Assembly (NCBI GenBank): GCA_017470245.1
Contig: JAFUEV010000003.1
Coordinates: forward strand, 1 to 64,000
Source: a bacterium
Lineage (GTDB): Bacteria; Cyanobacteriota; Vampirovibrionia; Gastranaerophilales; Gastranaerophilaceae
DNA: 64,000 nucleotides
Direction: 5' to 3'
In this document: positions 352 through 29,779 of the stretch, piece after piece
How the letters are laid out: each line of letters starts with the position of its first letter
Numbering within the stretch: the first letter of the stretch is position 1
The notes under the pieces: model-generated
What the model was told of the DNA's origin: nothing
What the model saw: the letters and a program-made list of their open reading frames with translations, nothing else
Databases searched by the model: none
Translations under genes and position numbers: made by a program

Positions 352-2910
352 ATGAATAGGGATATAAGAATGGTTGACTTTAGTAAACATATTGCAAAAA
401 AACAAATTATAAAAGACGATAATCCTATTGAAATATACAATAAATTAGATAGTGCAAGTGATATCAGTGAATTACGTCCTGCACAAAAAGAAATACTAAC
501 AAATTGGTATAATAATTATAAGGATAAGCACGATACTATAATAAAATTGCACACAGGAAAGGGGAAAACATTAATTGGGTTATTAATATTAAAATCCAAA
601 ATTAATTCAGGAGAAGGACCTTGTCTATATTTATGTCCCAATAGATATCTCGTTAACCAGACCTGCAAAGAAGCAGAAAGATTTGGTATTGAGGTATGCA
701 CAGATGAAACAGGAATACCAATTGAATTTGAAAATGGTGAAAAAATATTAGTTACAACGGCAAAAAAACTATTTAATGGACTCTCTGTATTTAAATTTGG
801 AGCAAATTCTATCCCCGTAAATACTATTGTTTTTGATGATTCTCATGCTTGTCTGGATGAAATTTGTGATTCTTTCACAATAAAAATCAAACGAAAAGAG
901 GATACTTCTCAACTATACAATAACTTAAAAAATCTTTTTTCTGATTCTTTAAAAAAGCAAGCATTAGGAACATATGCAGAAATAGAAAAAGGTGTAGGAA
1001 ATTCATATATAGTTATTCCATATTGGGATTGGCAATCCAAGATAGAAGAAGTTACATCAATTATATCTGTTTACTATGAATCAAAATATATTAAATATGC
1101 ATGGCCTCTTATAAAAAATGAATTAAAAAATTGTCAGTGCATTATATCAGCAAACAAAATAGAAATATCGCCATATTTAATTCCAATAGAAAAATTTGGT
1201 TCTTTTTATAATGCAAAAAATAGGATATATATGTCGGCAACAACAAACAATGATTCATTCTTTATTAAACAACTAAATGTATCAGACGAAGCAATTATGA
1301 AGCCGATAACATATGATGAAGAGTTATGGTTTGGTGAAAAGATGATATTAATACCATCTTTAATTGATGAAAAATTAGATAAAGATATATTTTTAGAGTA
1401 TTTTACAAAGACAATATTTGATAAAACACCAAAACTTAATTATGGAATATGCATTTTAACACCAAGTTCATATATGGCTAATCCATGGAAAAATAATGGA
1501 GCAGTAGAAGCAAAGGGTAATGATATTGAAAAAGCAATTAATTCATTAAAAGAAAAGAATTTTAGTAAACCAGTTGTATTTGCAAATAAATATGATGGCA
1601 TAGATTTGCCTGATTCAACTTGTCGATGTTTAATTTTTGATGGCATACCTTTTTCCGAAAGATATGCAGATAAATATTTTGAAGAATGTGTTCCTGATAC
1701 TGAAATTACAAATACCAAAATCGCTCAAAAAATTGAACAAGGATTAGGACGTAATATCAGAGGAAACAGGGATTATGGGGCAATAATATTATTAGGAAAA
1801 GATTTAATAAAATTTGTTCGTTCAAATAAATATAAAAAATACTTTTCACAACAAACTCAACAACAAATTGACATAGGCTTTGAAATCGCAAAATACTCAA
1901 AGGAAGATTCAACAAATGCTTTCGATGCATTTTTAGATGTTTATGAAAAATTACTTAATAGAGATGATGGATGGAAAGAATTTTATGCAAGTAAAATGAA
2001 TGAAATAACAAAGGAAAAAGAACATAAATTATTAAAAGTTATTAGAATGGAGCGAGAAGCAGAATATGCATATAAAAACGGAGAAATTCGAAAAGCAATA
2101 AATATAGTTCAAGACTATATTAATACGAATAATAATATTTCGGATTATGAAAAAGGGTGGTATTTAGAGCAAATAGCAAGGTATAAATATAACGAATCGC
2201 AATTGGAATCAATAAAAACTCAGACTTCAGCTCATAAATTGAACAATTACTTACTAAAACCGAGAGAAGGAATACAAATAAATAAAATTGATTCCAATAA
2301 GATTGTTCAAACTGAATTAATTAGTAAAAATTTTAAGGATTATTCCTGTTACAATGATTTTAAATTAGCCGCTGATGAAATTATAGAAAATTTGCAATTT
2401 GGTATTGATTCGGATAAATTTGAAAATGCAATAAAAGAACTTGGCATAATGTTAGGCTTTGCTTCTCAAAGACCAGATAAACAATGGAATGAAGGGCCAG
2501 ATAATTTATGGGCAGTTGCACCAAATGAATATTTTGTTATTGAATGCAAAAATATGGTAAAAGATGACCGTAGTTATATATCAAGAACTGAAACAGGGCA
2601 AATGAATAATTCTTACGGTTGGTTCTCAAAAAATTATCAGAATACTATTCCCACATATATAATGATAACACCAACCATAAACATAGAAAAAGGTGGTGCA
2701 TTTAATTGTGATGTTAATGTTATTCGTAAGAAAAACTTAAAAATTTTGAAGGATAATTTTTCTAATTTTATAAAAGAATTTACAAATTATAATTATGAAC
2801 ATATTACAAATGACGAAATATTTAAAAAACTAAAACATTATAATTTAGCTTACAATGATTTTTCTATTTATTTTGAAAAGCCTAAAGAAATTATAATACA
2901 GCAAAATTAA
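352..2910 (+). CDS. SF2 DEAD/DEAH-type helicase fused to a C-terminal PD-(D/E)XK nuclease
   Basis: An 852-residue protein. The N-terminal half is a superfamily 2 helicase: an LRPAQ element near residue 41, Walker A HTGKGKT at 67-73, a DDSH Walker B variant at 162-165, an SAT motif III near 294 and a QGLGRNIRG motif VI near 463. The C-terminus has a nuclease signature: a GPDNLW acidic turn near 715 and ECKN near 732, the D...ExK arrangement of PD-(D/E)XK enzymes. The middle (about 490-660) is lysine/glutamate-rich and unassigned. No strong ribosome binding site precedes ATG 352; ATG 370 is an alternative. The tcmP gene starts 18 bases downstream, so the two are probably cotranscribed. Role inferred: cutting or remodelling invading DNA. 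Confidence 0.8.
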   Translation: MNRDIRMVDFSKHIAKKQIIKDDNPIEIYNKLDSASDISELRPAQKEILTNWYNNYKDKHDTIIKLHTGKGKTLIGLLILKSKINSGEGPCLYLCPNRYLVNQTCKEAERFGIEVCTDETGIPIEFENGEKILVTTAKKLFNGLSVFKFGANSIPVNTIVFDDSHACLDEICDSFTIKIKRKEDTSQLYNNLKNLFSDSLKKQALGTYAEIEKGVGNSYIVIPYWDWQSKIEEVTSIISVYYESKYIKYAWPLIKNELKNCQCIISANKIEISPYLIPIEKFGSFYNAKNRIYMSATTNNDSFFIKQLNVSDEAIMKPITYDEELWFGEKMILIPSLIDEKLDKDIFLEYFTKTIFDKTPKLNYGICILTPSSYMANPWKNNGAVEAKGNDIEKAINSLKEKNFSKPVVFANKYDGIDLPDSTCRCLIFDGIPFSERYADKYFEECVPDTEITNTKIAQKIEQGLGRNIRGNRDYGAIILLGKDLIKFVRSNKYKKYFSQQTQQQIDIGFEIAKYSKEDSTNAFDAFLDVYEKLLNRDDGWKEFYASKMNEITKEKEHKLLKVIRMEREAEYAYKNGEIRKAINIVQDYINTNNNISDYEKGWYLEQIARYKYNESQLESIKTQTSAHKLNNYLLKPREGIQINKIDSNKIVQTELISKNFKDYSCYNDFKLAADEIIENLQFGIDSDKFENAIKELGIMLGFASQRPDKQWNEGPDNLWAVAPNEYFVIECKNMVKDDRSYISRTETGQMNNSYGWFSKNYQNTIPTYIMITPTINIEKGGAFNCDVNVIRKKNLKILKDNFSNFIKEFTNYNYEHITNDEIFKKLKHYNLAYNDFSIYFEKPKEIIIQQN

Positions 2911-2928
2911 TTAAACAGGATAACATAC

Positions 2929-4128
2929 GTGAACGATAAAAGAAATAAGCAACATTTTGGTGAACCCAAAAAAATAAATACACAAATTAAACATCATATT
3001 CTTTCAAATACATTAAATACTTCTTTAGCTATTGCAAATAACTTATGCAAAGTTTATAAAACTGATAAAGTATATACATATATTGATTTATTTGCAGGAA
3101 GAGGAGTTTTTGAAGACTATTCAAAAGGCTCACCATTAATTGCTATTGATTTGCTTTCTCAACATAATGAATCTGGAAAGAATAATTTTAATGACTTGCA
3201 AATAGTTTGTACCGAAAAAGATGATAAGAACTACTGTGATTTACAGCGATTATTAATAGAGTATCCTGATGAAAATATAACGTGCTACAGTGGTTCAGGA
3301 GAATGGGAATCATTTTCAGCTCAAATACAGTCTATCTTAAAAGATTCAGGTTGGGGATTTATATTTGCAGACCCATATTCAACTGAACTTGATATAGAAT
3401 CACTAAAAAATGCTTTGCAATCATATTCTAAATTAAAGGATATATTAGTTTTCTTTAATTTTAGGACTTTAGCTCGTCAAGATGGACGAAAATACATCCA
3501 AGATATAGACCGAATATGCAAAAATATAGGAATTAATGCTTCAGAGTTATTAGATGCGGATGAGAATTTCTCTGAAATCTTTGAATACAAAATTAAAGAA
3601 CATTTTAAAGATTTAAAGAAATTCGTAATTGGTGTCGGATTCCCTACAACTGTAAAAGGACAATTAATTAATTCTGATTACTTTTATTTAATATTTTCAA
3701 CAAATACCCCTGTTCTTGTTGATGCTTTTCTTGATTCATATGAAGAAATGCTTGAAAAATATACTAATTACAGTGTAAATCAACAAATGCCATTGTTTGG
3801 AAATCCCGATAAGAATTATATATTTGATGTACTTAAGACAGAATATTCAGGTGGTTGTACCCTGTACGATTTATATAAACATATTACAGATAAATTCTTA
3901 TCTTGGAAAGAACTGACAAAAACAATAAAGAAAGTACCTACTATAAAAAATGTTGTTTCTATTTTAAACGAATTCTACAATGAAGGTTCTATAAAATATA
4001 TTGCTAATAATGATGTATTTTATAAAAAAAATTCAAAACACGGATATGAAGGTAATTTAAGATATTCAGAGGCAGGAAAAAGTGCAGACAATATGAAAAA
4101 TATTAGAATTTGTTTAAATAGCAGGTAA
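2929..4128 (+). CDS. tcmP: Three-Cys-motif partner protein TcmP (methyltransferase-like)
   Basis: A 399-residue protein starting at GTG 2929 with an AGGA eight bases upstream. It has the family marks of three-Cys-motif partner proteins: YIDLFAGRG near residue 50 (Rossmann, methyltransferase-like glycine loop), CTEKD near 95 and FADPY near 144. The family is named because it occurs beside a DUF5131 protein with a three-cysteine motif; that partner lies here, convergent, overlapping the 3' end by 15 bases. The biochemical activity is unknown; the fold suggests nucleotide or SAM binding. The same-strand helicase-nuclease upstream suggests a joint defence or DNA-modification role, which is inference. 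Confidence 0.8.
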
Positions 4129-4824
4129 TTCTTTCCATAGTTTTCCGTCTAACTCACTACCATTTGCTTTTTTGTTTACGCCACCCCATTGTTTAAAGAA
4201 AAATGGGACTTTATTTTTTATACAATTATCTCTTATAGAAACAACCCATTCTTTTTTGATAGGTCTTGCTCCCGGTCCACTTTCGCCACCAACAATTACC
4301 CAATTAATACCTTTTAAAGATAAATTTTTAATGTCTGAAATCATAGGTTCTATTGATAAATATTTAATTTTTGCAGGAGTATTTATTAAATAAGGAATAC
4401 GGATTTTTTGTTTGTCTGATTCAACAGTAACACCTAACCATATATTTTTTGTCCATTTAAGTTTTGGTGCAATTTCTTCTAAACGGTCGGCACGCTTTGT
4501 TAATACCTGAAAAGTATGCCATTTCGCTTTATTCATAATATTAAATACTTTTATAATAAATTCATCGGGAACATCTTTATGGAACAAATCACTCATTGAA
4601 CATACAAATATAATTTGCGGTTTCTTCCAAGTTAACGGTTCTGATAAACATTCTTCATGCGTAGTAACATCAAAGCAGTTTTTATATTTTTTTTGTCCCA
4701 TTGCACATAAACGTCTTGCCATACGTTCAGCATAACAATTTAAACATCCTTCACTAATTTTTGTGCAACCTGTTACAGGATTCCATGTAGACTCAGTCCA
4801 TTCAATCTTTGACTTTTCTGCCAT
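4114..4824 (-). CDS. DUF5131 (phage Gp37/Gp68) family protein, three-Cys-motif partner of TcmP
   Basis: A 236-residue protein beginning [20 protein letters not shown]. The diagnostic cluster is C20-X6-C27-X2-C30 followed by YAERMARRL, typical of the phage Gp37/Gp68 family (PF07505). Further family blocks are [17 protein letters not shown] near 66, [10 protein letters not shown] near 104, WLGVTVES near 128 and a [12 protein letters not shown] stretch near 178. The three cysteines look like metal or Fe-S ligands and the overall pattern recalls radical-SAM-like barrels, but the reaction is not established. It is convergent with tcmP with a 15-base tail overlap, so the pair is kept together although transcribed from opposite sides. 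Confidence 0.85.
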
Positions 4825-4987
4825 TATGTATTTATCTCCTAATTATAAAATTATCATAAATTATCGATATTTTCATAATATATATAAATGACTTATATTA
4901 TAATAATTAAGAAATCATTTATTTAAACAATTTTTCAAAAACTAAATGTTATAATACACTAATAAAACAATAAGAAAGGGAAAGTGT

Positions 4988-5233
4988 ATGGATTATAACA
5001 TTTTAAATAATATTTCATCTGCTCGGCAAGCTGAAATTGTTTTTAGACAGCAGAAAGAAAAAGAACATATAGAAAAAAGTAATTATATGAACCTGCAACA
5101 ACTTGCTGAAATGGTTTATGAAAATCATAAATCATCAAAACGTCAGTTTATTGCAACGATAACTATTTCTGCAATCACACTTCTTTTTGCTGCATTTTCC
5201 TGTTATATTGCTTTTATTCGATTAAATGGTTAA
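4988..5233 (+). CDS. Small single-pass membrane protein upstream of HNH protein
   Basis: An 81-residue protein with a charged, glutamine-rich, helix-prone N-terminus (residues 1-52) and one hydrophobic segment at about 53-76, followed by FIRLNG. It would sit in the inner membrane with most of the protein on one side. A purine-rich AAGGGAAAGT lies just before ATG 4988 and a TATAAT-like box lies near 4951. The HNH gene follows after 27 bases, so it looks like the first gene of a three-gene unit. No family recognised; small membrane proteins beside effector nucleases are common in abortive-infection loci, so a sensor or anchor role is possible. Confidence 0.6.
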   Translation: MDYNILNNISSARQAEIVFRQQKEKEHIEKSNYMNLQQLAEMVYENHKSSKRQFIATITISAITLLFAAFSCYIAFIRLNG

Positions 5234-5260
5234 TAAAATGCGTAATAAAGGAGATTTAAA

Positions 5261-6109
5261 TTGAAAGAAGAACCCAAAAGATTTGAGCCTACCAAAGAAA
5301 CTATACGAGAACTATTTGCGAAATCAGGCAATATTTGTGCATTTAAAGGTTGCAATCATTTAATGATTGATGAAGATGGCACTTTTATTGGACAAATATG
5401 TCATATTGAAGGGGTAAAAGGTGAACGATATAATCCTAATATGTCCAATGAAGAAAGACGTGCTCCTGAAAATTTGATGTTAATGTGTTATGAACATCAT
5501 ATAAAAACAAATAATGAAAAGATATATACAGTAGAAGTTTTAAGAAAAATGAAAGAAGAACATGAAAAGAAATTTTCACATCCCGAAGATGCTATTCTTT
5601 TAACTTTTAGTGACCACACGGATGATCGAAATGTAGTCAGACCTAAAAATTTGAAACATTTTTTTAACGTTTTAAATTATTCTGAGGATGAACAAGAAGG
5701 AATTTTAGATACATTAAATATTGTAATTGATAAATTAGAAAGAATTCCCGAAAATGTACTCGTTGAATATGCAGCTATCACAGATAGAATATATAAAATG
5801 AAAGATAATAAAAAAGTAACAGAAATCGATATTAACTATATGTCAATATTAGAACATGATATAAAATCAGCTTTTAGAATGACAGAAAATGAAACTTTTG
5901 AAATGGGAAAAAGGTTTGAATCATATGATTTAGGATATGCCGAAAAAGGTGTTTTTAGAGGAAATGAATATGAACAAGTTTATTTTGTACTTAAAAATTT
6001 AGATTTTGAATGGAATTTTTTCTTACAATTATCCGAATTTTGTGCAAACAAAAGTATAAAATTAAAATCTATACTTAAAGACTTGGATTTTTCAATACTT
6101 GATGAATAA
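5261..6109 (+). CDS. HNH endonuclease domain protein
   Basis: A 282-residue protein with a TTG start at 5261 preceded by AAAGGAG at a good distance. Residues 21-85 form an HNH/zinc-finger nuclease: C26-X4-C31, then ICHIEG with H48, then NLMLMC with C76, then H79/H80, i.e. two cysteine knuckles plus the histidine of the beta-beta-alpha metal site. Residues 100-282 form a helical, acidic C-terminal part of unknown function. It sits between the small membrane protein and the ApeA-like gene. Cleavage of phage or host nucleic acid is the likely activity, from domain content and neighbourhood. Confidence 0.75.
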   Translation: MKEEPKRFEPTKETIRELFAKSGNICAFKGCNHLMIDEDGTFIGQICHIEGVKGERYNPNMSNEERRAPENLMLMCYEHHIKTNNEKIYTVEVLRKMKEEHEKKFSHPEDAILLTFSDHTDDRNVVRPKNLKHFFNVLNYSEDEQEGILDTLNIVIDKLERIPENVLVEYAAITDRIYKMKDNKKVTEIDINYMSILEHDIKSAFRMTENETFEMGKRFESYDLGYAEKGVFRGNEYEQVYFVLKNLDFEWNFFLQLSEFCANKSIKLKSILKDLDFSILDE

Positions 6110-6177
6110 TATATAATATTTACAATAACATATAGATAAAATTTAAAAATGTATATAATTATACACGAGGAGGGATA

Positions 6178-7587
6178 TTGGAATTAGAAGGAATTTGCTT
6201 TGATAAAAACAAAAGCTTTTCGGGTGCTTTTCAATTGCCAAATGGCAATACATATTTTGGAAAATTCTTTTATAAAAAAAATGAGCAATGCGAATTTTAT
6301 ATATATATGAATGGTCTCAGCATAGAAGAAAGAGAATTTAATGAAATAAAAGCTCAACTATCAGATGAAAATGAAAATATTTTCTGTGTAAATTTCTTCA
6401 ATTGTGAAATAGAACCCAAATCATTTTCTTCTGTTTGGGATGTCTTTTGTGGTTATTTTGATTATGCTCTTTTTTCAAGATATAGATATTTTGATTCCAA
6501 TACAGAGGATATTAATAAAAAAGTAAATATATTTATTAATACTTGGGCTGAATTTTGTTTCCCTCAAGGATATAAACATCATGCAGCCTTTGAACCTAAA
6601 TTATTTGAGTTTAAGTTAAAAAATAAGATGAAAATATCATTTAATCAAGGCATAAAAGGATATTTAATTGCAGAAAATCATATTTTTGATAATTTGTTTA
6701 TTAATAGAGGATTATCTAAAAAAGAGATAAATATTATAGAAAAACAACTAAATAATATTCTAATTCCATATAAGAATAACATAGGCATAAAAAATACAGA
6801 AAAGCACAAATGGTATATTCAAATAGAAAATATTCCGAAAAATATTGATATAGACATTATTGATTATTCACTAACCCTAATGCTAATTTGTTTTACCTAT
6901 GATTTCGGTTCAAAAATAGATAAAATAGAAATTGTTTCAAAAGATATCTTAAATAATGCCACATTACCTGCTATATTTGATTATCTATATTATATGAACA
7001 TAATTACTAAAGAACCGAAATATAAATACAAACAAAGTGCCTTCAATATAAACACATTTAGCAAACAAGAATGGCAAATTATTTTAAATAATTTATTTTC
7101 AAAAAGCAAAATTTTGATGCCTTTTTTTGATATCCTTTATCAAAATAATTATGAAAGGAATCTATCTGAATATCATTTGGAACGTTATATAGATTGCATT
7201 TCTGCAATAGGAATTAATAAAAACTATGGCAGAATGGATAAATATGAAAAGGTTTTACAAAATTTTGTCAATAATTTAGATAAAGATACTCAGAAAAAAT
7301 TATTAAATCAGTTTAGACGTTCTCTAAAAAACATAAAAGCAGGAAATCCTAAAAATAACAAAAAAAGAAATTGGGGATTAATTGGCAAAAAATTATCTGA
7401 ATTAAGAGCAATGACAACACATTTTAATGATTCAAGTAAACGTATTAATATGAGTAAATTTTTCTCAATTTATTTCATTATAGAGCTGATTGTTATTGAT
7501 TATATTTTTGAAATATTAGGAATAGATGAACAAAAAAGAATTGATTATAAAGAATTTTATCTAAAGAAAATTCCATATACAAGTTAA
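6178..7587 (+). CDS. ApeA-like protein with C-terminal HEPN ribonuclease motif
   Basis: A 469-residue protein with a TTG start at 6178 after GAGGAGGG. The N-terminus (1-100), with its repeated FSGAF/TYFGKF beta-strand pattern, resembles the ApeA N-terminal domain. Residues 380-469 look like a HEPN helical domain: the LSELRAMTTH segment gives R410-X4-H415, the RX4-6H ribonuclease signature, in a helix after a lysine-rich linker. ApeA proteins are known anti-phage abortive-infection effectors that act on RNA. It is the last gene of the run that starts at 4988, 68 bases after the HNH gene. The family match was made by eye; the HEPN motif is clear, the N-terminal match less so. Confidence 0.6.
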   Translation: MELEGICFDKNKSFSGAFQLPNGNTYFGKFFYKKNEQCEFYIYMNGLSIEEREFNEIKAQLSDENENIFCVNFFNCEIEPKSFSSVWDVFCGYFDYALFSRYRYFDSNTEDINKKVNIFINTWAEFCFPQGYKHHAAFEPKLFEFKLKNKMKISFNQGIKGYLIAENHIFDNLFINRGLSKKEINIIEKQLNNILIPYKNNIGIKNTEKHKWYIQIENIPKNIDIDIIDYSLTLMLICFTYDFGSKIDKIEIVSKDILNNATLPAIFDYLYYMNIITKEPKYKYKQSAFNINTFSKQEWQIILNNLFSKSKILMPFFDILYQNNYERNLSEYHLERYIDCISAIGINKNYGRMDKYEKVLQNFVNNLDKDTQKKLLNQFRRSLKNIKAGNPKNNKKRNWGLIGKKLSELRAMTTHFNDSSKRINMSKFFSIYFIIELIVIDYIFEILGIDEQKRIDYKEFYLKKIPYTS

Positions 7588-9175: not shown

Positions 9176-10969
9176 ATGGATTATAGTATATATAAAGATA
9201 GTGATGTTATATCTACTGTTGATAGAATTAAAAAAATTCTATCGGGAGTTGGGATAGACTTGAAAGAATATATACAGGAATATTCTTCCGAAGAAAAATA
9301 TATACCGTATTCTATGCGTGTTACTCTTTTTGGAAAAGATAATTATGGTACTAACGGAAAAGGTACATGTTTAGAAAATTGCATAGCAAGTGCATATTCA
9401 GAGTTTATGGAACGACTGCAAAATTTTTATTTACGTGATAATTGTTTAAAATTAGTTTCTGATGATTTTATTTATACTCCTGATGAAAAAGAATATCTGC
9501 CGGAAAATAATCAAATCCTAAATAAATACTACGATGATGAAATTATTGAATATGCAAATAAAATTGTAGATTTTTTGAAGGACAATAAAAAACAAACAGA
9601 AGTTCCGTTTTATTCCGTAAAAGAAAATAAAGTGGTTTATTTACCTATAGACATAATAAAATTTTTTCAGGGCTCTAATGGTATGTCAGCAGGTAATACT
9701 GTTGAAGAAGCTTTGGTTCAGGGATTATCCGAAGTTTTTGAAAGAAATGCTATGCGACAAATCATTTTTAACGAGTTGTCAATGCCTGATATTCCGAAAA
9801 ATATTTATGAAAAATATAACAATCTTTCGGGAATAATAAAATATATATCAAAACAGGGTTGGACAATTACTGTAAAAGATGCATCTGTCGGAAAAAAGTT
9901 TCCTGTTGTTTGTACGATATTGGAAAATAAAGAAAAAAAATTATTAACCTTCAAATTTGGTGCTCATCCGTCTTTACCTATAGCAATAGAAAGAACATTG
10001 ACCGAATTTACTCAAGGGAATTTTTTAAATGAAAGCACTTATGATTTGTTAATGTTTAATAGTTATGGTGTTACGAATGATTTTCTTTATAAGAATTATC
10101 TGTTTATCCAATCATTTCGTTTTAGTCAATATCTGCCTGATACAAATAAATTATTTTCTAAAATATTAAACAGTGCAAAAAACTATGATTTCTCTTTAAA
10201 TAGTTGGATTGATGAAAATAAAAAATATTCAAATAAAGACTTATTAAAATTTTTATTTAATACTTTAAAAGTAAATTCAATAGAAGATGTATATATAAGA
10301 GATGTATCGTTTTTGAATTTTCCTTCGTTTTATATTTATATTCCGGCTCTTTCCGAAATTCATAATTACGATAAAAATACTATGGAAAGAGATTTTGATG
10401 AAGTATGTTGGGATAATTATAAAGCAGATAAAGTAGAAAATCATAAAGATATAGATAGTTTGTTATATGTTGTTGAACGTAAAATTTCTAATGTTAATCC
10501 TTTTTTGGAGCAAACGTTTATTACTCCGTATCCAAATGAATATATTGCTTTACTTTGTTATATCGTCAAAAAAAATATTGATAAAATTATAGATTATAGT
10601 AACTCTCTTATTAACAATAATTTTTATGCGTATTTGAAAAATAAAAATTTGATTTTATTTATTAACAGATATTTTTCACTTATCAAGCAAAATTTGGATG
10701 AAAATAAAATTAACAGTATGCTGGAAAATGAATTTAATGCAGATGATATAAAATATTGTAAAACATTTATATTATATTTGGATTTTGATAAAGTAAAAAG
10801 AATCATTAGTAATGTTAATAATAAAAAATCGTTAATAGAAAAACAACAAAATCCGTTTTCTGTTGAACAAAATAATGAGCTTGAAAATATAAGATTAAAA
10901 TTAACTGAAAAATATAAAAATAATACACCTAATCAAATAAATCTTTCAAAAGTGTTTGATTTTGTATAA
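9176..10969 (+). CDS. ycaO: YcaO-family protein, E. coli YcaO type
   Basis: A 597-residue protein, close to the roughly 590 residues of E. coli YcaO and with the same architecture: an N-terminal ATP-binding YcaO domain and a helical C-terminal extension. ATP-site motifs are visible: SAYSEFMER at 72-80 (SxxxExxER), SNGMSAGN from 167 followed by GLSEVFER, and ERTLTEFTQG from 272 with the ExxQ pair. The C-terminus lacks the PxPxP tail of peptide cyclodehydratases, and no precursor peptide, TfuA or dehydrogenase gene is nearby. E. coli YcaO is linked to methylthiolation of ribosomal protein S12; the same role here is inference. A flavodoxin gene follows after 15 bases. Confidence 0.85.
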   Translation: MDYSIYKDSDVISTVDRIKKILSGVGIDLKEYIQEYSSEEKYIPYSMRVTLFGKDNYGTNGKGTCLENCIASAYSEFMERLQNFYLRDNCLKLVSDDFIYTPDEKEYLPENNQILNKYYDDEIIEYANKIVDFLKDNKKQTEVPFYSVKENKVVYLPIDIIKFFQGSNGMSAGNTVEEALVQGLSEVFERNAMRQIIFNELSMPDIPKNIYEKYNNLSGIIKYISKQGWTITVKDASVGKKFPVVCTILENKEKKLLTFKFGAHPSLPIAIERTLTEFTQGNFLNESTYDLLMFNSYGVTNDFLYKNYLFIQSFRFSQYLPDTNKLFSKILNSAKNYDFSLNSWIDENKKYSNKDLLKFLFNTLKVNSIEDVYIRDVSFLNFPSFYIYIPALSEIHNYDKNTMERDFDEVCWDNYKADKVENHKDIDSLLYVVERKISNVNPFLEQTFITPYPNEYIALLCYIVKKNIDKIIDYSNSLINNNFYAYLKNKNLILFINRYFSLIKQNLDENKINSMLENEFNADDIKYCKTFILYLDFDKVKRIISNVNNKKSLIEKQQNPFSVEQNNELENIRLKLTEKYKNNTPNQINLSKVFDFV

Positions 10970-10984
10970 TTCAAAGGAGAGATA

Positions 10985-11605
10985 ATGAATATAAAAGTAA
11001 TTTTTATTATATGTTTAATACTGATAGGATGCAGCTTTTTATTTTTAAAACAAAACAAAGGAGGTATTTCTATGGCAGAAGCCGGTACAAATCATAAAGT
11101 TTTGGTAGCATATTTTTCAAGAACAGGGGAACAATACGGAGTAGGAAATATAAAAGAAGGAAATACAGCTATTGTTGCAAAAATTATTGCCGAAAAAACA
11201 AATGGTGATTTGTTTGAAATAAAAGTTGCACAGGATAATTATCCTAAAAGCTATAATGAGTTAACCGAATATGCAAAAAAAGAAATGCAGCAAAATGCAC
11301 GTCCGGAAATTGTTGGTAAGGTAGAAAATTTTTCTGATTACGATACAATTTTTATCGGTTATCCTGTTTGGTGGGGTGACAAACCTATGCCTGTTTATAC
11401 GTTTATAGATAATTATGATTTTAACGATAAAACTATTGTTCCTTTTGCAACGCATGAAGGCAGCGGTTTTTGCGGTACTCAGGGCATGGATAAACTCGGT
11501 GCTAAAATTCTTAAAGGGCTTGGAATGTACGGGCATGTTGCGCAAAAAGATAAACCTCAAGCAGATAAAATTGTTTCAGGTTGGTTAAAAGAAATAGGAT
11601 ATTAA
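10985..11605 (+). CDS. Flavodoxin-domain protein, lipoprotein form with internal start
   Basis: A 206-residue protein. Residues 1-20 look like a lipoprotein signal (FIICLILIGCS, lipobox LIGC with C16). From residue 38 a flavodoxin fold follows: VLVAYFSRTGEQ (phosphate loop), then FIGYPVWWGDKP near 121 and FATHEGSGF near 155, the FMN-contact loops of the flavodoxin_4 group. Two starts are well supported: AAAGGAG before ATG 10985, and AAAGGAGGT seven bases before the in-frame ATG 11072 (residue 30), which would give a soluble 177-residue flavodoxin. It probably shares a transcript with ycaO. Likely function: electron transfer in the cytoplasm and/or at the membrane. Confidence 0.8.
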   Translation: MNIKVIFIICLILIGCSFLFLKQNKGGISMAEAGTNHKVLVAYFSRTGEQYGVGNIKEGNTAIVAKIIAEKTNGDLFEIKVAQDNYPKSYNELTEYAKKEMQQNARPEIVGKVENFSDYDTIFIGYPVWWGDKPMPVYTFIDNYDFNDKTIVPFATHEGSGFCGTQGMDKLGAKILKGLGMYGHVAQKDKPQADKIVSGWLKEIGY

Positions 11606-22453: not shown

Positions 22454-22483
22454 AGATAATAAAAAGGTTTATTTATATTATCT
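22454..22483. terminator. Convergent hairpin after malic enzyme
   Basis: AGATAATA (22454-22461) pairs with TATTATCT (22476-22483) between the malic enzyme stop and the end of the minus-strand nuclease gene. AT-rich and without a long T-run, so a moderate terminator candidate that overlaps the minus gene end. Confidence 0.4.
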
Positions 22484-23363
22484 TGTTTAATACTATATCT
22501 ATATTTTTTTCTGAAATGTCATTTGTATTCCAGTTTGTAAATAATAAGCTGGTTTGAATTTTATTTGTATATGTTTTTGATTTTAAATAGTATTCTTCAA
22601 AATCGATTTGTGATGTTGTTGTTAATTTTTGAATATCATTTAAAAAATCAATCATTGTTTCTTGTGAAAAATCAAGATATTTTATCTCAAATGAAATTTT
22701 ATTATCTAAATTTTCTTCAATAAATCTTAAATATTTGAAAAATTTTAGCCAATTATTTTTCCATAGCTTTAAGTATTTTTCATTTTTACTATGTTTGTTA
22801 CCGTTTGGTTGGCAACTGTATTTAAAATATTTTTGAGGAGCAAGTATTGTAAGTATGATTTTATTTTTGTCGTTTTTTCCTTCACCTTTTAAATACATAA
22901 AATAATTTTTTAATGCTTCAATTGCAGCATAAGAGGGAGGATTTGCCGCAGCTCTGTCCCATTGTTTTAGTTCAATAATATATGTTGTTTTTTTGTCTTT
23001 TAACAAAATATCTATATGACTCGGTTGATTTTTATCATGTATCGGATATTGATTTTCAATATTGAACATATCTTTATTAGTAAGAAAAATGAGTCTTTCA
23101 ATCATTTCTTCAAAGCGTTTTGTTGAAGAGTCAACTGTCATAATATTTTTATTGCCCTTTGTAGATTTTGGCGCTATTTTTGCTTTTTCTGTTTTTGATT
23201 TTACATTTTCTATTGTTATTTTTGCCAAAAATTCCAAAAAAGTGTTATCTAATTTATGAAAATTGTAGAAACCTGTCTTACAGTTTGTAAAACGTGTGTT
23301 ATCATTTATATTTTTTATAATATCAGTCAGACATTCAGTTGATTTTTTTTGTATGGTTGGCAT
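22473..23363 (-). CDS. PD-(D/E)XK nuclease-like protein
   Basis: A 296-residue protein. Residues 104-136 give the nuclease core: a QYP strand, D118 in HIDILL, and E131-L-K133 followed by QWD, which is the D...ExK arrangement. The ELKQWD form is like the nuclease domain that precedes DUF2075 helicases. The rest is lysine-rich with no membrane segment. It starts 21 bases after the stop of the large helicase gene upstream on the same strand, so the two probably work together. Nucleic-acid cleavage in defence is inferred from domain and neighbour. Confidence 0.65.
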   Translation of the reverse strand: MPTIQKKSTECLTDIIKNINDNTRFTNCKTGFYNFHKLDNTFLEFLAKITIENVKSKTEKAKIAPKSTKGNKNIMTVDSSTKRFEEMIERLIFLTNKDMFNIENQYPIHDKNQPSHIDILLKDKKTTYIIELKQWDRAAANPPSYAAIEALKNYFMYLKGEGKNDKNKIILTILAPQKYFKYSCQPNGNKHSKNEKYLKLWKNNWLKFFKYLRFIEENLDNKISFEIKYLDFSQETMIDFLNDIQKLTTTSQIDFEEYYLKSKTYTNKIQTSLLFTNWNTNDISEKNIDIVLNKII

Positions 23364-23384
23364 TTTAAAACTCCGTTTTAATTT

Positions 23385-26300
23385 TTATATCATTTCTGTA
23401 AATATAGTTTTAATTCTTTCAATGCAGCCTTGCTGACTTGTATACCATTCACGGAAAGACAATCTTTCTACGATAATACCGGTTCTTTCCATTAACGTTT
23501 GTTTTTTAATTTGAGTTTTATTAGTTCGTATATTATCTTCAACACCGTCGCATTCAACAATAATACTTCTGCCGGCAGGGTCTGTTACGATTAAATCCGA
23601 ACTTAAACCTGCAACTGTTTGACCCGCAATAACGCTAAAACCTTCATTTCTTAAAAATGCAGCAACTTCTTTTTCAAAACTGTTTTTATATATACTTTCA
23701 TCAATTCCAAGCTCATCATTTAATTTATTTCTGTCTATATATGCTTGAACATATTCTATATAATCTTTTAGAAGACCTTGTGGCAATGATTTGGGATTTT
23801 TAGAAAGAAATATTATCTGTTTCTTTTTAGCACGTGTTATAGCAACATTGAACAGATTTGGTATCTGTAAAAATGTTAAACTTTGATTGAAACTGTTATC
23901 TGCAACTGCCCAGGATAACATCATTATATCTCTTTCATCGCCTTGGAAGGTGTGAGCAGTACCTGCTTCTATCTTATGACGTCTTAAAACAGCCTCCGGA
24001 TATAATTGACCGAGAGCTTTCTTTATTAATTCAACCTGACCTCTAAACGGCGAAATAATTCCGACGGTTACAGGTTCATGATTTTCATCTTTTATTCTGT
24101 CATCTTCTTGCAATATTTCTTGGAGTCTTTGCATTATTGCTTCAACTTCTGGCATGTTTCTTGTCATTTCGGAATCGACTTTTCCGTCTTCAACACGAAT
24201 AAGCTCTAATACCTTTTTATCGTTACATTGTGACATAATTCTTATTCTGTCACCGTAAAATTCTTTGTTGCTGAAATCTATAATAGGTGCATAGCTTCTG
24301 AAATGTTCATCCAATAATACAGGCTTTGTTGAATAGTAGTTTGCCAAATCGAACATGGAATTTGTTCTGAATTTCCACATTAATTGATATTTATCGGGAA
24401 TTTCATACTGGCTTAAAAATGATTGTTCTTTTGATTTTTCAAGGAATGATAAATGCGGTAATTGTTTATCGTCACCAACGATAACAGCCTTTTTGCATCT
24501 GTATAGTATAGGTACACAACTTGCAATATCGCATTGAGATGCTTCATCTATAATTGCAACATCAAACATTCCAGGTTTTAAAGGTAAAGAATCAGATACC
24601 GCATAACTTGTTACGCACCAGCACGGGAATGCTTCCAGTAACGGTTTAAAATCTTCATCTTCAAGAAGTCTGTTTTGTAGGTTTTTCTTTCTTGTTGTTA
24701 ATGCTTTTGTATGAACGATTAATCTTTGGCGTTTAACCTGATCACGCAATAATCCTTTTAAAGAATTTCTTCTTTTACCTTTTAAAATTTCTATTGCAAG
24801 GGTTCTTTGTTTCTTTTTCAGAATTTTTATTTCTGTTAACAGGTTATGGATATTGCCTATTTTATATATTTGAGTTTCTGTATATCTGGCTTGTGTTGCA
24901 AGTCTTGCAGTTTCAAGCTCCATTTTTAAACGCTCAAGGTTTTCAAAATCAGGTTTGAAGTCTTTATTTTGTATTATTTTTTTTAATTGGTGATTTGCGT
25001 ATTTTGTTGATATATCAGCAAAAAATCCTTGTTTTTCGGTATTTTTTTCAAGGTTTTTTATTGCTCCTTCAATATCCTCAACTTCTTGCATAGTTAGTTT
25101 TCCTGTTAGAAATTGCATATTGCCGAGTTGTTTTTCTTTTTCATCATGTTCTTTTATTATTTTTTGCCAATCCTGTTCCAGTTTGATGATTTCTTCACAT
25201 TGATTTTCTTTTTCTTTGATGGTTGCAAGGAGTTTTCTCATATCATCAACATCAACAAGAATTGAATTTTCAAAATCAGTATCCAAATCAACTTTGTTGG
25301 AGATTAAATCTTGCAGGTCAAATGATAATTGTTTTTGATAATTTGCTCTTCCTGCCCTTAAAGCAAGATATGGGGCACCGAAATCATTCAATCTGTTTGC
25401 AACAACGTCTGTTGCTTTATCCATTCTTGATGCAACTAAAACCGTTTTGCCGTTTGAAATTAAGTGACATATCAAATTAACAATAGTTTGTGATTTACCT
25501 GTACCGGGCGGGCCGTATACTGATAAAATTGTATTGTCTTCAAGATTTCTTATAACATCCTCTTGCGAATCACTCAATGATAAAGGTGTAATAGCTGCAA
25601 AGTCTTTATTTGAGTTATCTTTTATTATTTTAGATGCAGATTTACCTTGAAGATATTCTTCATTTACAAGTGTTAATGCGGTTTCCCTTATTATACCCGA
25701 CGGTTTTTCGGCAATCTGCATTAATTCATAAAGTACACCTGCGGTTACTAAAGGTCGTTTTGTTAGAATTATTGCACTTTTATTAGTTAAAACTACTTTA
25801 TCTGCTTTTAATTTTGGTTTTGGTTTTTCGTTTTCCACAACTTCTATTGCTTCTTCCAAGTTCTCAAAATTGATTTTTTTATCTTCGTAAAATTCTGAAC
25901 CGTCATCTTGTACGTTATTTTCAAGATTTTCTTCTTCGTTTAATTCAAATTCCAAATCAGGAATTAATGATTTTAATGTTGTAAGGAATATATTTAATTC
26001 TTCTTCTTTCAAAGGTAACTTGGGAACAACATCTAATAAACCGTCTAACATATTATCTATTTCGTCTTCTTCTCCGGATAAGTTCATTAAACTTGTCAGA
26101 GCGGCTGTATTTAAAGATAATCCTTCTTCTTGAACGGAACATTCAATGTTCATTCCCACACGTTCTAATTTACATGTAGAATATAATAACGGGGTTAAAA
26201 ATTCATTTTTACGTTTTGTTTTTGCATTTTTACCCACTAAAAATAGGTAACCGTATATTAAATATTTGTCTTTTTGGCTATTTTCGCTTAAGAGCATTAA

Positions 26301-26570
26301 TTCTGTTAAATAAGAATCGGAACCATCTAATTTTAATGCTTGAGGATAGTTTGTGAATAGTTTTTCATTATCAGTGATAAGAGGTGTATCACTCTGTTTT
26401 TCGGTTTGAGATTCCAAAAAAATCCATTTATTATCTTTGTCTTGTTTTAAATTTCTAAAGGTAGAACTTTGTACTTCTTCTCTTACACAGTCGTGAAGAT
26501 ATAAACAAAGTCTTTTAATAAAACTGTTATTAAATGCCGAATTTAAAATTTTAGTAGCTTCCTGAAGCAT
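23385..26570 (-). CDS. Large SF1 (DNA2/UPF1-like) helicase with C-terminal REase-like domain
   Basis: A 1061-residue protein. The N-terminal third (to about 330) is an unassigned acidic region. Walker A GPPGTGKSQT near 352 follows SDSQEDVI, a Q-motif-like start. A long helical insertion (about 430-640) precedes motif II IIDEASQCD near 671 and GDDKQLPHL near 699. Later SF1 motifs are LDEHFRS, AGTAHTFQGDERD and FNVAITRAKKK. The C-terminus (about 970-1061) resembles the MTES_1575/Vsr-like nuclease domain: FEKEVAAFL, LIVTDPAGRSIIVECDG, MERTGI and LSFREWYTS. It leads a two-gene minus-strand unit with the PD-(D/E)XK protein. Helicases of this build are common in defence loci. Confidence 0.82.
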   Translation of the reverse strand: MLQEATKILNSAFNNSFIKRLCLYLHDCVREEVQSSTFRNLKQDKDNKWIFLESQTEKQSDTPLITDNEKLFTNYPQALKLDGSDSYLTELMLLSENSQKDKYLIYGYLFLVGKNAKTKRKNEFLTPLLYSTCKLERVGMNIECSVQEEGLSLNTAALTSLMNLSGEEDEIDNMLDGLLDVVPKLPLKEEELNIFLTTLKSLIPDLEFELNEEENLENNVQDDGSEFYEDKKINFENLEEAIEVVENEKPKPKLKADKVVLTNKSAIILTKRPLVTAGVLYELMQIAEKPSGIIRETALTLVNEEYLQGKSASKIIKDNSNKDFAAITPLSLSDSQEDVIRNLEDNTILSVYGPPGTGKSQTIVNLICHLISNGKTVLVASRMDKATDVVANRLNDFGAPYLALRAGRANYQKQLSFDLQDLISNKVDLDTDFENSILVDVDDMRKLLATIKEKENQCEEIIKLEQDWQKIIKEHDEKEKQLGNMQFLTGKLTMQEVEDIEGAIKNLEKNTEKQGFFADISTKYANHQLKKIIQNKDFKPDFENLERLKMELETARLATQARYTETQIYKIGNIHNLLTEIKILKKKQRTLAIEILKGKRRNSLKGLLRDQVKRQRLIVHTKALTTRKKNLQNRLLEDEDFKPLLEAFPCWCVTSYAVSDSLPLKPGMFDVAIIDEASQCDIASCVPILYRCKKAVIVGDDKQLPHLSFLEKSKEQSFLSQYEIPDKYQLMWKFRTNSMFDLANYYSTKPVLLDEHFRSYAPIIDFSNKEFYGDRIRIMSQCNDKKVLELIRVEDGKVDSEMTRNMPEVEAIMQRLQEILQEDDRIKDENHEPVTVGIISPFRGQVELIKKALGQLYPEAVLRRHKIEAGTAHTFQGDERDIMMLSWAVADNSFNQSLTFLQIPNLFNVAITRAKKKQIIFLSKNPKSLPQGLLKDYIEYVQAYIDRNKLNDELGIDESIYKNSFEKEVAAFLRNEGFSVIAGQTVAGLSSDLIVTDPAGRSIIVECDGVEDNIRTNKTQIKKQTLMERTGIIVERLSFREWYTSQQGCIERIKTIFTEMI

Positions 26571-26700: not shown

Positions 26701-27639
26701 TTATTTCATTATTAAATTTAATTCGTTAAGCATTTTTTTATCTTCATTTGAAGTTGAACCGGAGGTTGTTAAGTAATTCCCGACCAATAAAGAATTTATA
26801 CCCGCCTCGATTCCTTTTTTCTGATTTTGTTTACTTAACCTTGTTGTTCTTCCTCCTGCATATCTCAACATTGTATTTGGTAATATTATTCTAAAAATGC
26901 AGATGGTTTTTAATACTTCTTCTTCAGTAATTTTATTTTGATAGTTTTCAAGGGCAGTACCTTTAATAGGATTCAAAATGTTAACCGGAACGGTTTTCGG
27001 ATTGATTTTTTTTAGCTCTAAAGCCATATCTATTCTGTCTTCTCTTGATTCTCCCATCCCGATTATTACACCGCAGCATGCTTCAATACCGTGTTTTTTT
27101 ATGAGTCTGACGGTATTTACTCTGTCCTGATAATTGTGGGTTGTGCAAATATTTTTGTGATAATTTTCTGACGTATTAATATTGTGGTTATACCTTTCAA
27201 CACCGGCTTCTTTTATGCGTTTTATTTGTTTTTCCGATAATAATCCCAATGAAGCACAACAGTGTATTCCGTCAATTGATGCAACTGTTTTAATCATTTC
27301 TATGATTTTTTCAAAATCCTGATTATTCGGGACTCTGCCTGATGTTACAATACAAAAACGTGTTGCTCCATTTTTTTGGGCACTTATAGCCGCTTTTTTA
27401 ACTGTTTCAATATCCAGAAGCGGGTGACATTCTATTTCTGCGTGATTATGTTTGCTTTGAGAACAGTATTTACAGTTTTCGTTGCAAGCACCTGTTTTTG
27501 CACTAATTATACTGCAAGCTTCGACTTTGTTATCAAAATTACTTTTTGTTATTTCGTTTGAGATTTTAATAAGTTCATCCAGTGATTTATCATATAATTT
27601 TAAATAGTCATCTTTTGAATAATTATCGAATTTGTTCAT
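26701..27639 (-). CDS. bioB: Biotin synthase paralog 1 (radical SAM)
   Basis: A 312-residue radical SAM protein of the BioB family, which inserts sulfur into dethiobiotin. The SAM cluster motif is C52-X3-C56-X2-C59. Auxiliary-cluster positions, by alignment to E. coli BioB C97/C128/C188/R260, are C96 (RFCIVTSG), C127/C128 (IHCCASLG), C188/C189 (ACCGVIIGMGE) and R259 (LRYAGGR), all retained. GGAG lies upstream of ATG 27639, and a CGGTAT-N8-ATACCG palindrome covers the likely transcript start. No bioA/D/F/C genes are near; it is divergent from mnmA. A second, different paralog lies at 28862. Confidence 0.88.
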   Translation of the reverse strand: MNKFDNYSKDDYLKLYDKSLDELIKISNEITKSNFDNKVEACSIISAKTGACNENCKYCSQSKHNHAEIECHPLLDIETVKKAAISAQKNGATRFCIVTSGRVPNNQDFEKIIEMIKTVASIDGIHCCASLGLLSEKQIKRIKEAGVERYNHNINTSENYHKNICTTHNYQDRVNTVRLIKKHGIEACCGVIIGMGESREDRIDMALELKKINPKTVPVNILNPIKGTALENYQNKITEEEVLKTICIFRIILPNTMLRYAGGRTTRLSKQNQKKGIEAGINSLLVGNYLTTSGSTSNEDKKMLNELNLIMK

Positions 27640-28861: not shown

Positions 28862-29779
28862 ATGAATAAAGAAACATTATTAAAATTATATAATTTGGAA
28901 TTAAATGAATTATTAGATATATCTTCCAAATATATGACAAATAACATTGAATTTTGTTCGCTTGTAAATGCAAGAAACGGCAAATGTTCTCAAGATTGCA
29001 AATATTGTGCTCAAAGTTCACATTACAGAACAAAGATTGAAGATTATCCTTTAATTCCAAAAGAAGAAGTTGTTAAAGCGGCATTAGAGGCTAAAAGTAA
29101 CGGAGTTATCAGATTTGCTATTGTTACATCAGGCAAATCTCCTGATGAAGAAAATTTTGATAAAATTCTTGAATTTATTGATGAATTAAATAAAATAGAC
29201 GGAATAAAAAGTTGTGCTTCAATCGGGATTTTAAATGAAGAACAGGCAAAAGAACTTGCAAAACACGGTTTAAAAAGATTTCATCATAATATAAATACAT
29301 CAGAGTCTTATTATAAGGATATTTGTACGACTCATAGCTGGAAAGACCGTTTAAATACTTGTAAACTTGTAAAAAAATACGGTATGGAATTATGCTGCGG
29401 TGTTATTTTAGGTATGGGAGAAACAGTGGAACAAAGGATTGAAATGGCATTAGAACTTGCTGAAATAGAACCCGAATCTATCCCTATTAATATTTTAATG
29501 CCGATACCTCAAACGCCGTTTGAAAATTATCAAGATAAAATTGACGAAGAAAATGTTTTAAGAACCCTTGCTATATTTAAAATAGCAAATCCAAAATCTG
29601 TTTTAAGATTTTGCGGAGGAAGAATGAAATTATCGGATGAAAATCAGGAACTTGCTCTAAAGACTTGTGTTGAAGGTATAATGACGGGTAATTATTTAAC
29701 TACAACAGGTAAAAAACCTCAAGAAGATATTAAGACAGTTGAAAAATTAAATAAAACATTGATTAGTTTGTCCAAATAA
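28862..29779 (+). CDS. bioB: Biotin synthase paralog 2, altered auxiliary-cluster ligands
   Basis: A 305-residue BioB-family radical SAM protein. SAM cluster C42-X3-C46-X2-C49. At the auxiliary site the equivalent of E. coli C97 is alanine (A86, RFAIVTSG), C118 (KSCASIG), C178/C179 (LCCGVILGMGE) and R249 are kept, and C251 appears in FCGGR where paralog 1 has alanine. Biotin synthases of anaerobes are known to differ in auxiliary-cluster type and ligands, so this may be the anaerobe-type enzyme; a different substrate is the alternative. It starts one base after the mnmA stop, and larB follows after 52 bases with its own promoter. Confidence 0.82.
   Translation: MNKETLLKLYNLELNELLDISSKYMTNNIEFCSLVNARNGKCSQDCKYCAQSSHYRTKIEDYPLIPKEEVVKAALEAKSNGVIRFAIVTSGKSPDEENFDKILEFIDELNKIDGIKSCASIGILNEEQAKELAKHGLKRFHHNINTSESYYKDICTTHSWKDRLNTCKLVKKYGMELCCGVILGMGETVEQRIEMALELAEIEPESIPINILMPIPQTPFENYQDKIDEENVLRTLAIFKIANPKSVLRFCGGRMKLSDENQELALKTCVEGIMTGNYLTTTGKKPQEDIKTVEKLNKTLISLSK

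What the first reader, a model, noticed from the sequence alone, without database searches (positions are those of the whole stretch)
22473..26570. Second helicase/nuclease pair, probable defence module
A 1061-residue SF1 helicase with a Vsr-like nuclease tail is followed by a 296-residue PD-(D/E)XK protein with an ELKQWD motif that, in other proteins, sits in front of DUF2075 helicases. Two nucleases and a helicase in a two-gene unit between housekeeping genes is typical of a small defence insertion.
Basis: partly seen in the sequence, partly recalled or inferred. Interest (0 to 1): 0.55.

Follow-up and report, generated by a model that had tools for sequence, protein, structure and literature searches.

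The report
Core helicase beside a stray nuclease
The large helicase is an ordinary gene that nearly all relatives of this gut bacterium carry, and the small nuclease next to it is a rare newcomer whose relatives usually sit beside a different enzyme, so the two are probably neighbours by accident and not a joint anti-virus system.

Summary
Both genes are real and lie where stated, but they are not a two-gene defence insertion.

The window comes from a Gastranaerophilales MAG. The 1061-aa gene is a Upf1/Sen1/Dna2-like SF1 helicase with a C-terminal MTES_1575 (Vsr-like) domain. It is in 188 of 191 genomes of the family, as common as the core GTPase Der, and diverges in step with Der (Mantel r 0.94). 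It is a vertically inherited core gene, although its neighbours change between species.

The 296-aa gene is AT-rich (24% GC against 32%) and rare: 5 of 191 genomes, 0 of 8 congeners. In the other four its homologue lies beside or one gene from a beta-CASP/RNase-J-like metallo-beta-lactamase (MBL) gene, and on a different contig from the helicase. This genome has such an MBL too, but on another contig. MBL relatives on plasmids and a viral contig often adjoin proteins with a D...ExK nuclease signature.

Best reading: a core helicase, and behind it an orphaned half of a candidate two-nuclease module. PADLOC 2.0 barely recognises the module, and my limited searches found no paper on it. Whether it defends against phage is untested.

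The parts
23385..26570 (-). 1061-aa SF1 (Upf1/Sen1/IGHMBP2/Dna2-like) helicase with C-terminal Vsr-like domain; core gene of its family
23733..25610 (-). SF1 helicase core (residues 321-946), aligned with Sen1, Upf1, IGHMBP2 and Dna2 structures at Z 18-20
   Evidence: e.g. IGHMBP2 4b3f Z 19.2, rmsd 3.7, 328 aligned; Dna2 5ean Z 18.0, rmsd 3.8, 334 aligned; Pfam AAA_11/AAA_12
25485..25514 (-). Walker A, GPPGTGKSQT (residues 353-362); nine of ten positions invariant in 28 aligned orthologues
24534..24554 (-). Walker B, IIDEASQ (residues 673-679); D675 and E676 invariant in 28 aligned orthologues
23409..23678 (-). MTES_1575 / Vsr-like REase domain (residues 965-1054); E1006, D1008, G1009, D1012 and K1023 invariant in 28 aligned orthologues
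23371..23375 (-). CGGAG, ribosome-binding-site-like, 7 nt before the nuclease ATG in the 21-nt gap after the helicase
   Evidence: read directly
22473..23363 (-). 296-aa PD-(D/E)XK-signature protein; rare, AT-rich accessory gene; relative of the nuclease half of an MBL-associated module
22965..23012 (-). nuclease signature D118 ... E131-L-K133 (residues 118-133)

Best explanation
Two unrelated genes lie side by side. (1) The 1061-aa protein is a core SF1B-type helicase fused to a Vsr-like nuclease domain. It most likely works in routine DNA or RNA maintenance (Dna2/Upf1-like unwinding plus trimming). Its core status is shown; its substrate and role are inferred. (2) The 296-aa protein is the PD-(D/E)XK-signature half of a two-gene module whose other half is a beta-CASP/RNase-J-like MBL nuclease. 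In most complete copies the two genes abut, overlap or are fused. I infer that the PD-(D/E)XK protein recognises or nicks foreign nucleic acid and the MBL enzyme degrades it. In this genome the halves are apart: the nuclease gene has come to rest 21 nt behind the helicase and may be co-transcribed with it, while an MBL gene of this family sits alone on contig C35. The window nuclease is therefore an orphan, either working in trans with that MBL or a remnant. Shown: distribution, adjacency elsewhere, intact signature residues. Inferred: nuclease activity, defence role, trans action.
For: Helicase: 188 of 191 family genomes, all at E <= 8.5e-150. Der control: 191 of 191 with a match, five of them only at E 1.7e-22 to 3.4e-18. 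Mantel r 0.936, 0 of 5000 permutations as high (25 genomes). Nuclease: 5 of 191 genomes, 0 of 8 congeners; GC 0.241 vs helicase 0.318 and window 0.301. Nuclease homologue next to the MBL in G051, G100 and G150, one 140-aa ORF away in G160; in all four the helicase orthologue is on another contig. MBL: 10 of 191 hits, one of them (G165) RNase J by my reading; all 5 nuclease genomes are among the other nine (see the bias noted in the Against line). Other D...ExK partners adjacent or fused in G021, G026 and G087 and near 7 of 9 plasmid MBLs and viral contig L170, which were found through the MBL alone.
Against: The two window genes are 21 nt apart on one strand with an RBS-like site, and the scan reports no terminator-like site between them, so they may be co-expressed. 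The co-occurrence test (Fisher 6.3e-8; 1.3e-6 without this genome) is inflated: the MBL was chosen because it adjoins the nuclease in G051, G100 and G160, and G150's nuclease was found through its MBL; only this genome's MBL is an independent case (base rate 8 of 190). The lone MBL's closest relative (G087, 74% identical) is fused to a different partner type, so it may never have partnered the window nuclease. G000 has 8.25% contamination, and I found no second assembly of this junction. PD-(D/E)XK membership rests on motif and sub-threshold Pfam hits; six of the nine partner proteins scanned have no nuclease family match (the G087 fusion, with MBL matches only, makes a seventh). Two of nine plasmid MBL loci (H6, H12) have no D...ExK neighbour by my pattern, which was written after reading the others. 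A UvrD-like frame lies about 1.2 kb from the G051 nuclease, on the other strand.
Confidence: 0.7

Rival explanations
1. The helicase and nuclease are a genuine two-gene defence module: the helicase unwinds invading DNA and both nuclease domains cut it.
For: Same strand, 21-nt gap, RBS-like site, no terminator-like site reported between them. The helicase's distant relatives include anti-phage proteins (ProA, Hhe, MkoC, PDC-S37).
Against: Helicase in 188 of 191 genomes, nuclease in 5 of 191; in the other four nuclease genomes the two are on different contigs. ProA/Hhe/PLuB scores are far below their cut-offs (183 vs 1500, 115 vs 2000, 118 vs 999 bits).
Confidence: 0.07
2. The helicase is a core gene but has a constitutive immunity role, as RecBCD does: a housekeeping helicase-nuclease that also degrades phage DNA, which the accessory nuclease may augment.
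For: Helicase plus MTES_1575 domain in 28 of 28 orthologues scanned. No AddA or RecB match above the curated cut-off in 60 family genomes.
Against: 58 of 60 genomes have sub-cut-off AddA and RecB matches, many in frames of 800-1,150 aa, so absence of AddAB/RecBCD is not shown; the cut-offs were passed in only 2 and 1 of 14 control genomes. Nothing here tests function.
Confidence: 0.15
3. The 296-aa gene is a relic without function, caught after its module broke up.
For: No MBL gene beside it; AT-rich; not found in 8 of 8 congeners.
Against: Full-length ORF with the signature residues D118, E131 and K133 intact and an RBS-like site.
Confidence: 0.3

Closest known systems
Upf1/Sen1/IGHMBP2/Dna2 group of SF1B helicases
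   Same: Helicase core residues about 321-946 align at Z 18-20 with Sen1, IGHMBP2, Upf1 and Dna2; Pfam AAA_11/AAA_12.
   Different: Here a C-terminal MTES_1575 domain; residues 1-337 have no Pfam match at E<=0.01, and the fold search barely tested them.
Anti-phage helicase/nuclease proteins ProA and Hhe, and PADLOC PDC-S37 and MkoC
   Same: Share the helicase core and, for Hhe, ProA and PDC-S37, the C-terminal stretch.
   Different: The PDC-S37, ProA and Hhe models are longer (1550-1911 positions). Scores are far below the NCBIfam cut-offs, and this gene is core, not patchy.
Type VII CRISPR Cas14 and RNase J/aCPSF1 beta-CASP nucleases (for the MBL partner only)
   Same: The G100 MBL matches RNase J family TIGR00649 (5.7e-17) and Cas14 (2.2e-11); PMC10910872 (passages seen) describes Cas14 as a beta-CASP effector.
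   Different: All below curated cut-offs (61 vs 400 bits; 43 vs 800); the neighbour here is a D...ExK protein, whereas Cas14 works with Cas5/Cas7. CRISPR arrays were not searched for.
MBL-nuclease plus trypsin-like protease pairs of Hachiman/AVAST/Lamassu/DRT (PMC12799240, passages seen)
   Same: A two-gene arrangement in which an MBL-fold nuclease is one half.
   Different: That MBL resembles ComEC and is activated by proteolysis; here the MBL is RNase-J-like and its neighbour carries a nuclease signature.

Membership tests
Core (housekeeping) gene of its family (helicase) | present in nearly all complete genomes | tested here: met
   188 of 191; 158 of 159 genomes at least 90% complete and at most 5% contaminated
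Core (housekeeping) gene of its family (helicase) | vertical inheritance in step with another core gene | tested here: met
   Mantel r 0.936 with Der over 25 genomes, 0 of 5000 permutations
Core (housekeeping) gene of its family (helicase) | conserved gene neighbourhood | tested here: not met
   neighbours vary even within the genus, although PlsY lies in the 1.5-kb flanks of Der in 24 of 29 loci
MTES_1575 (PF18741) Vsr-like domain | Pfam gathering score | tested here: met
   43.7 vs 38.2 bits for the window protein; 28 of 28 orthologues match at E<=0.001
Anti-phage ProA (NF058533) / Hhe (NF042953) / PLuB (NF040671) | curated NCBIfam cut-off | tested here: not met
   183/1500, 115/2000, 118/999 bits
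PADLOC PDC-S37 / MkoC | full-length match | tested here: inconclusive
   E 1e-51 and 7e-50; best stretch about 420 of 1550 and 560 of 1136 positions; no curated cut-off given
PD-(D/E)XK superfamily (296-aa protein) | D ... ExK signature conserved in the family | tested here: met
   D118, E131, K133 invariant in 5 of 5
PD-(D/E)XK superfamily (296-aa protein) | Pfam gathering score | tested here: not met
   PDDEXK_9 17/25.5, NERD 16.3/22.1 bits
PD-(D/E)XK superfamily (296-aa protein) | PD-(D/E)XK fold | tested here: inconclusive
   single-sequence model, mean pLDDT 44.7; not searched against structures
MBL + D...ExK module described here | MBL gene in the same genome | tested here: met
   G000:C35:75786-77009
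MBL + D...ExK module described here | MBL gene next to the nuclease gene | tested here: not met
   window neighbours are the helicase and malic enzyme
Type VII CRISPR Cas14 (for the MBL partner) | curated cut-off of NF045584 | tested here: not met
   42.8 vs 800 bits for the G100 MBL
MBL-trypsin pair | trypsin-like protease partner | not tested
   no search for that domain was made in the MBL loci

The most novel reading that the evidence does not exclude
A widespread, undescribed two-nuclease immune module: a conserved beta-CASP/RNase-J-like MBL enzyme with interchangeable D...ExK partners (at least two partner groups whose profiles do not match significantly), found in Gastranaerophilales genomes, on proteobacterial and clostridial plasmids and on a viral contig. 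The window shows it split, with one half captured in what may be the transcript of a core helicase.
Probability: 0.3. Interest if true: 0.65.

Novelty: new variant of a known kind. Interest (0 to 1): 0.4.

Why it matters
It removes a false 'helicase-nuclease defence pair' and shows that tight spacing on one strand is weak evidence of partnership in this group, where the order of gene blocks is shuffled between species. It also points to a testable partner: relatives of the small nuclease sit beside a beta-CASP-like MBL enzyme, a pairing that PADLOC 2.0 hardly recognises (no hit for 4 of 4 nucleases scanned and for 5 of 6 MBLs, one weak hit). What the near-universal helicase-nuclease of this family does is an open housekeeping question in itself.

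Tried and rejected
Rejected: helicase as part of an insertion; a fixed position as proof of housekeeping (no fixed position exists); nuclease as a known phage or plasmid gene (no match in phages or plasmids at E 0.01; none confirmed in viral contigs, or genome contigs, whose first step needs short conserved peptides); helicase as stand-in for AddAB/RecBCD (inconclusive).

Led nowhere or weak: single-sequence fold of the nuclease (pLDDT 44.7); solved-structure search with the nuclease profile (two chance-level hits); profile comparison of the two partner groups (hhalign probability 1.9%, E 0.026, though it does align D...ExK on D...ExK), so their common origin is not shown; promoter/terminator scan (counts near those of shuffles); literature searches: I saw no title or abstract start about an RNase-J-like MBL with a PD-(D/E)XK partner, but the terms were narrow, three searches returned nothing, and most subscription papers are not held. 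The Foldseek/VIA search of the helicase model (mean pLDDT 68.6) covered essentially its helicase core; the N-terminal and nuclease parts were barely tested.

Dropped before counts: G165 from the MBL set (28% identity, RNase J by my reading, no search made); G177 (contig ends at the MBL) from neighbour counts only, still in the Fisher test; H10 (same length and coordinates as H9; not fetched), H15 (not fetched) and H16 (about 25% identity) from the plasmid neighbour count; viral hits L171-L174 (partial, 27%) were not read. L169's neighbour has E-V-E in place of ExK and is not counted as a signature.
Full report
What is there. On the minus strand, ORF 26570-23385 (1061 aa) is followed after 21 nt by ORF 23363-22473 (296 aa), with CGGAG 7 nt before the second ATG. 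The genes around them are Der, PlsY and malic enzyme on one side, BioB, MnmA and a second BioB on the other. The window is contig C14 of a 2.56-Mb assembly, 96% complete and 8.25% contaminated. The best-matching named loci are mostly titled Candidatus Gastranaerophilales MAGs; the top helicase match is 90% identical.

The helicase is a core gene. A match is found in 188 of 191 genomes drawn from the family (this one included), all at E 8.5e-150 or better, and in 158 of 159 of the cleaner ones; the 8 congeners have it at 70-86% identity. The control, the GTPase Der, matches in 191 of 191, but five genomes (G091, G105, G153, G160, G180) have only weak, paralogue-level matches (E 1.7e-22 to 3.4e-18). 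Across 25 genomes the protein distances of helicase and Der correlate at r 0.936, with 0 of 5000 permutations as high. In a phylum-wide draw of 292 genomes the close matches stop at the order; in the listed rows beyond it E is 5.6e-39 or weaker, and four of the five same-class genomes listed from family f3 have no match (77 further genomes without a match are not listed). This is the pattern of a vertically inherited gene, not of a defence island.

Its position is uninformative. None of the 78 named loci, as far as each extends, contains the nuclease, and the helicase's neighbours differ even within the genus. Gene order is shuffled between blocks but kept within them: PlsY is found in the 1.5-kb flanks of Der in 24 of 29 loci and malic enzyme in 20 of 29. 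All 8 congeners keep Der-PlsY-malic; in the seven whose contig continues, what follows differs from the window, and only G077 and G185 agree with each other. So 'between housekeeping genes' does not mark an insertion here.

What the helicase is. Pfam AAA_11, AAA_12 and MTES_1575 pass their gathering scores, and all three match in 28 of 28 sequences scanned. In the 28-row alignment the Walker B pair D675-E676 and E1006, D1008, G1009, D1012 and K1023 of the nuclease domain are invariant, so that domain is under selection. A model from these 28 sequences (mean pLDDT 68.6) aligns over residues about 321-946 with Sen1, IGHMBP2, Upf1 and Dna2 at Z 18-20 (for example 4b3f, Z 19.2, rmsd 3.7, 328 residues). 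It is related to, but far below the cut-offs for, the anti-phage families ProA, Hhe and PLuB. AddA and RecB models are not reached at cut-off in any of 60 family genomes, but 58 of 60 have sub-cut-off matches, many in frames of 800-1,150 aa, so I do not claim that AddAB/RecBCD is missing.

The nuclease is a rare newcomer. One protein query finds it in 2 of 191 family genomes, a two-row profile in 3 of 386 phylum genomes, a five-row profile in 5 of 191 family genomes: this one, G051, G100, G150, G160. None of the 8 congeners has it. Its GC is 0.241, against 0.318 for the helicase and 0.301 for the window. The other members are 25-29% identical to the window protein, with 17 invariant columns including D118, E131 and K133. 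No relative was found in phages, plasmids, viral contigs or genome contigs by the searches made.

Its usual neighbour is an MBL-fold protein. In G051, G100 and G150 the next gene on the same strand is a ~400-aa MBL protein; in G160 one 140-aa ORF lies between, and the nuclease region there is fused behind a flavodoxin-like part (label from reading). In all four the helicase orthologue is on a different contig. G051's contig does hold a UvrD-like frame about 1.2 kb away on the other strand. The MBL query hits 10 of 191 family genomes; one, G165, is RNase J by my reading. All five nuclease genomes are among the remaining nine (Fisher 6.3e-8; 1.3e-6 leaving this genome out). These p values are inflated, because the MBL was picked as the neighbour of three of the five nucleases and the G150 nuclease was found beside its MBL. 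The independent case is this genome, at a base rate of 8 of 190.

G021 and G026 have other D...ExK-type proteins upstream of the MBL, and G087 has one fused to it in one 723-aa protein. Pfam hints are sub-threshold for the G021 and G026 proteins (HamA; HSDR_N_2 and PDDEXK_9), and no nuclease family matches the G100 and G150 nucleases, the three plasmid partners tried, or the L170 partner. Of eight MBL loci with visible flanks, seven have a signature-bearing partner and this genome's (C35) has none. The C35 MBL carries Lactamase_B_2 and RMMBL above gathering score; the G100 MBL resembles RNase J (5.7e-17) and Cas14 (2.2e-11), below their cut-offs.

The association reaches further, in loci found through the MBL alone. 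The MBL has 12 plasmid matches. Of nine distinct ones at 27-32% identity, seven (H5, H7, H8, H9, H11, H13, H14) have a D...ExK protein beside the MBL, H5 and H9 downstream and H5 with a small ORF between; H6 and H12 have none by my pattern. That pattern was written after reading the sequences. Viral contig L170 has one overlapping by 4 nt; L169 has an E-V-E variant. Eight partners (six from plasmids, L170 and the G087 fusion) share invariant R170, D172, E189 and K191. Their profile does not match the window nuclease's significantly (hhalign probability 1.9%), so the partners may be different proteins recruited to one MBL. Contexts include SspB-, SspC- and BrxP-like genes (G051), a reverse transcriptase (G100), REase-ARP genes (G021, G150) and a D5-type primase (G021), and, by reading only, WYL-type regulators (G051, G100, L169). 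PADLOC has no hit for the four nucleases scanned and for five of six MBLs; the sixth has one weak hit, PDC-S05 at E 0.0022.

In this genome the halves are apart. The MBL is at G000:C35:75786-77009 with a dehydrogenase on one side and a large repeat protein on the other (both labels from reading). The dehydrogenase is 79-89% identical in ten congeners and at most 79% in eight genomes of other families, so C35 is probably of the same genus; none of nine congener loci checked has the MBL within 1.5 kb. The MBL's sister in the tree is G087's, which is fused to the other partner type. Trans action between the window nuclease and this MBL is therefore possible but not favoured.

Verdict. Shown: a core helicase, a rare nuclease-signature protein, and adjacency of the latter's relatives to a beta-CASP-like MBL. 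Inferred: catalysis, defence, and the orphan status of the window copy. The claimed two-gene defence unit is not supported; the defence link of the small gene alone is plausible.

Noticed in passing
window 352-7587: Candidate defence island: a helicase matching PADLOC PDC-S28 (E 4.5e-300), a TcmP protein (TIGR04474 94 bits, cut-off 53), a PDC-M41B/M30B protein (E 4e-117), a protein related to PDC-M68A and PADLOC 'Effector/Endonuclease' models, and a 469-aa unknown at 23% GC.
   Followed up: partly
window 26701-27639 (-) and 28862-29779 (+): Two biotin synthase (BioB) genes flank MnmA, both above the TIGR00433 cut-off (386.7 and 372.7 vs 225 bits).
   Followed up: no
window 9176-10969: A YcaO-domain protein (TIGR00702 137.5 bits, cut-off 75.65) followed by a flavodoxin-like ORF at 10985-11605 (label from reading the sequence).
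   Followed up: no
L139:6627-8798: In genome G087 the D...ExK partner and the MBL are one 723-aa protein, in a neighbourhood that reads as phage-like (resolvase, methyltransferase; labels from reading).
   Followed up: partly
L125:9290-10648: In G160 the nuclease homologue is the C-terminal part of a 452-aa ORF whose N-terminal part looks like an NADPH-dependent FMN reductase (label from reading the sequence).
   Followed up: no
L144:5558-5953, L145:7256-7630, L147:5516-5992, L152:5555-5998: Four proteobacterial plasmid MBL genes have a similar 124-158-aa neighbour with a GIFW motif; a possible third component.
   Followed up: no
helicase orthologues in G019, G087, G102, G109, G141, G158, G173, G190: Single in-frame stop codons in an otherwise core gene, in at least these eight of the listed rows; sequencing error or decay, not examined.
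   Followed up: no
G077:C3, G074:C12, G183:C15: Paralogues about 36% identical over residues 642-1021, in 1018-1020-aa frames; candidates for truly accessory helicases.
   Followed up: no
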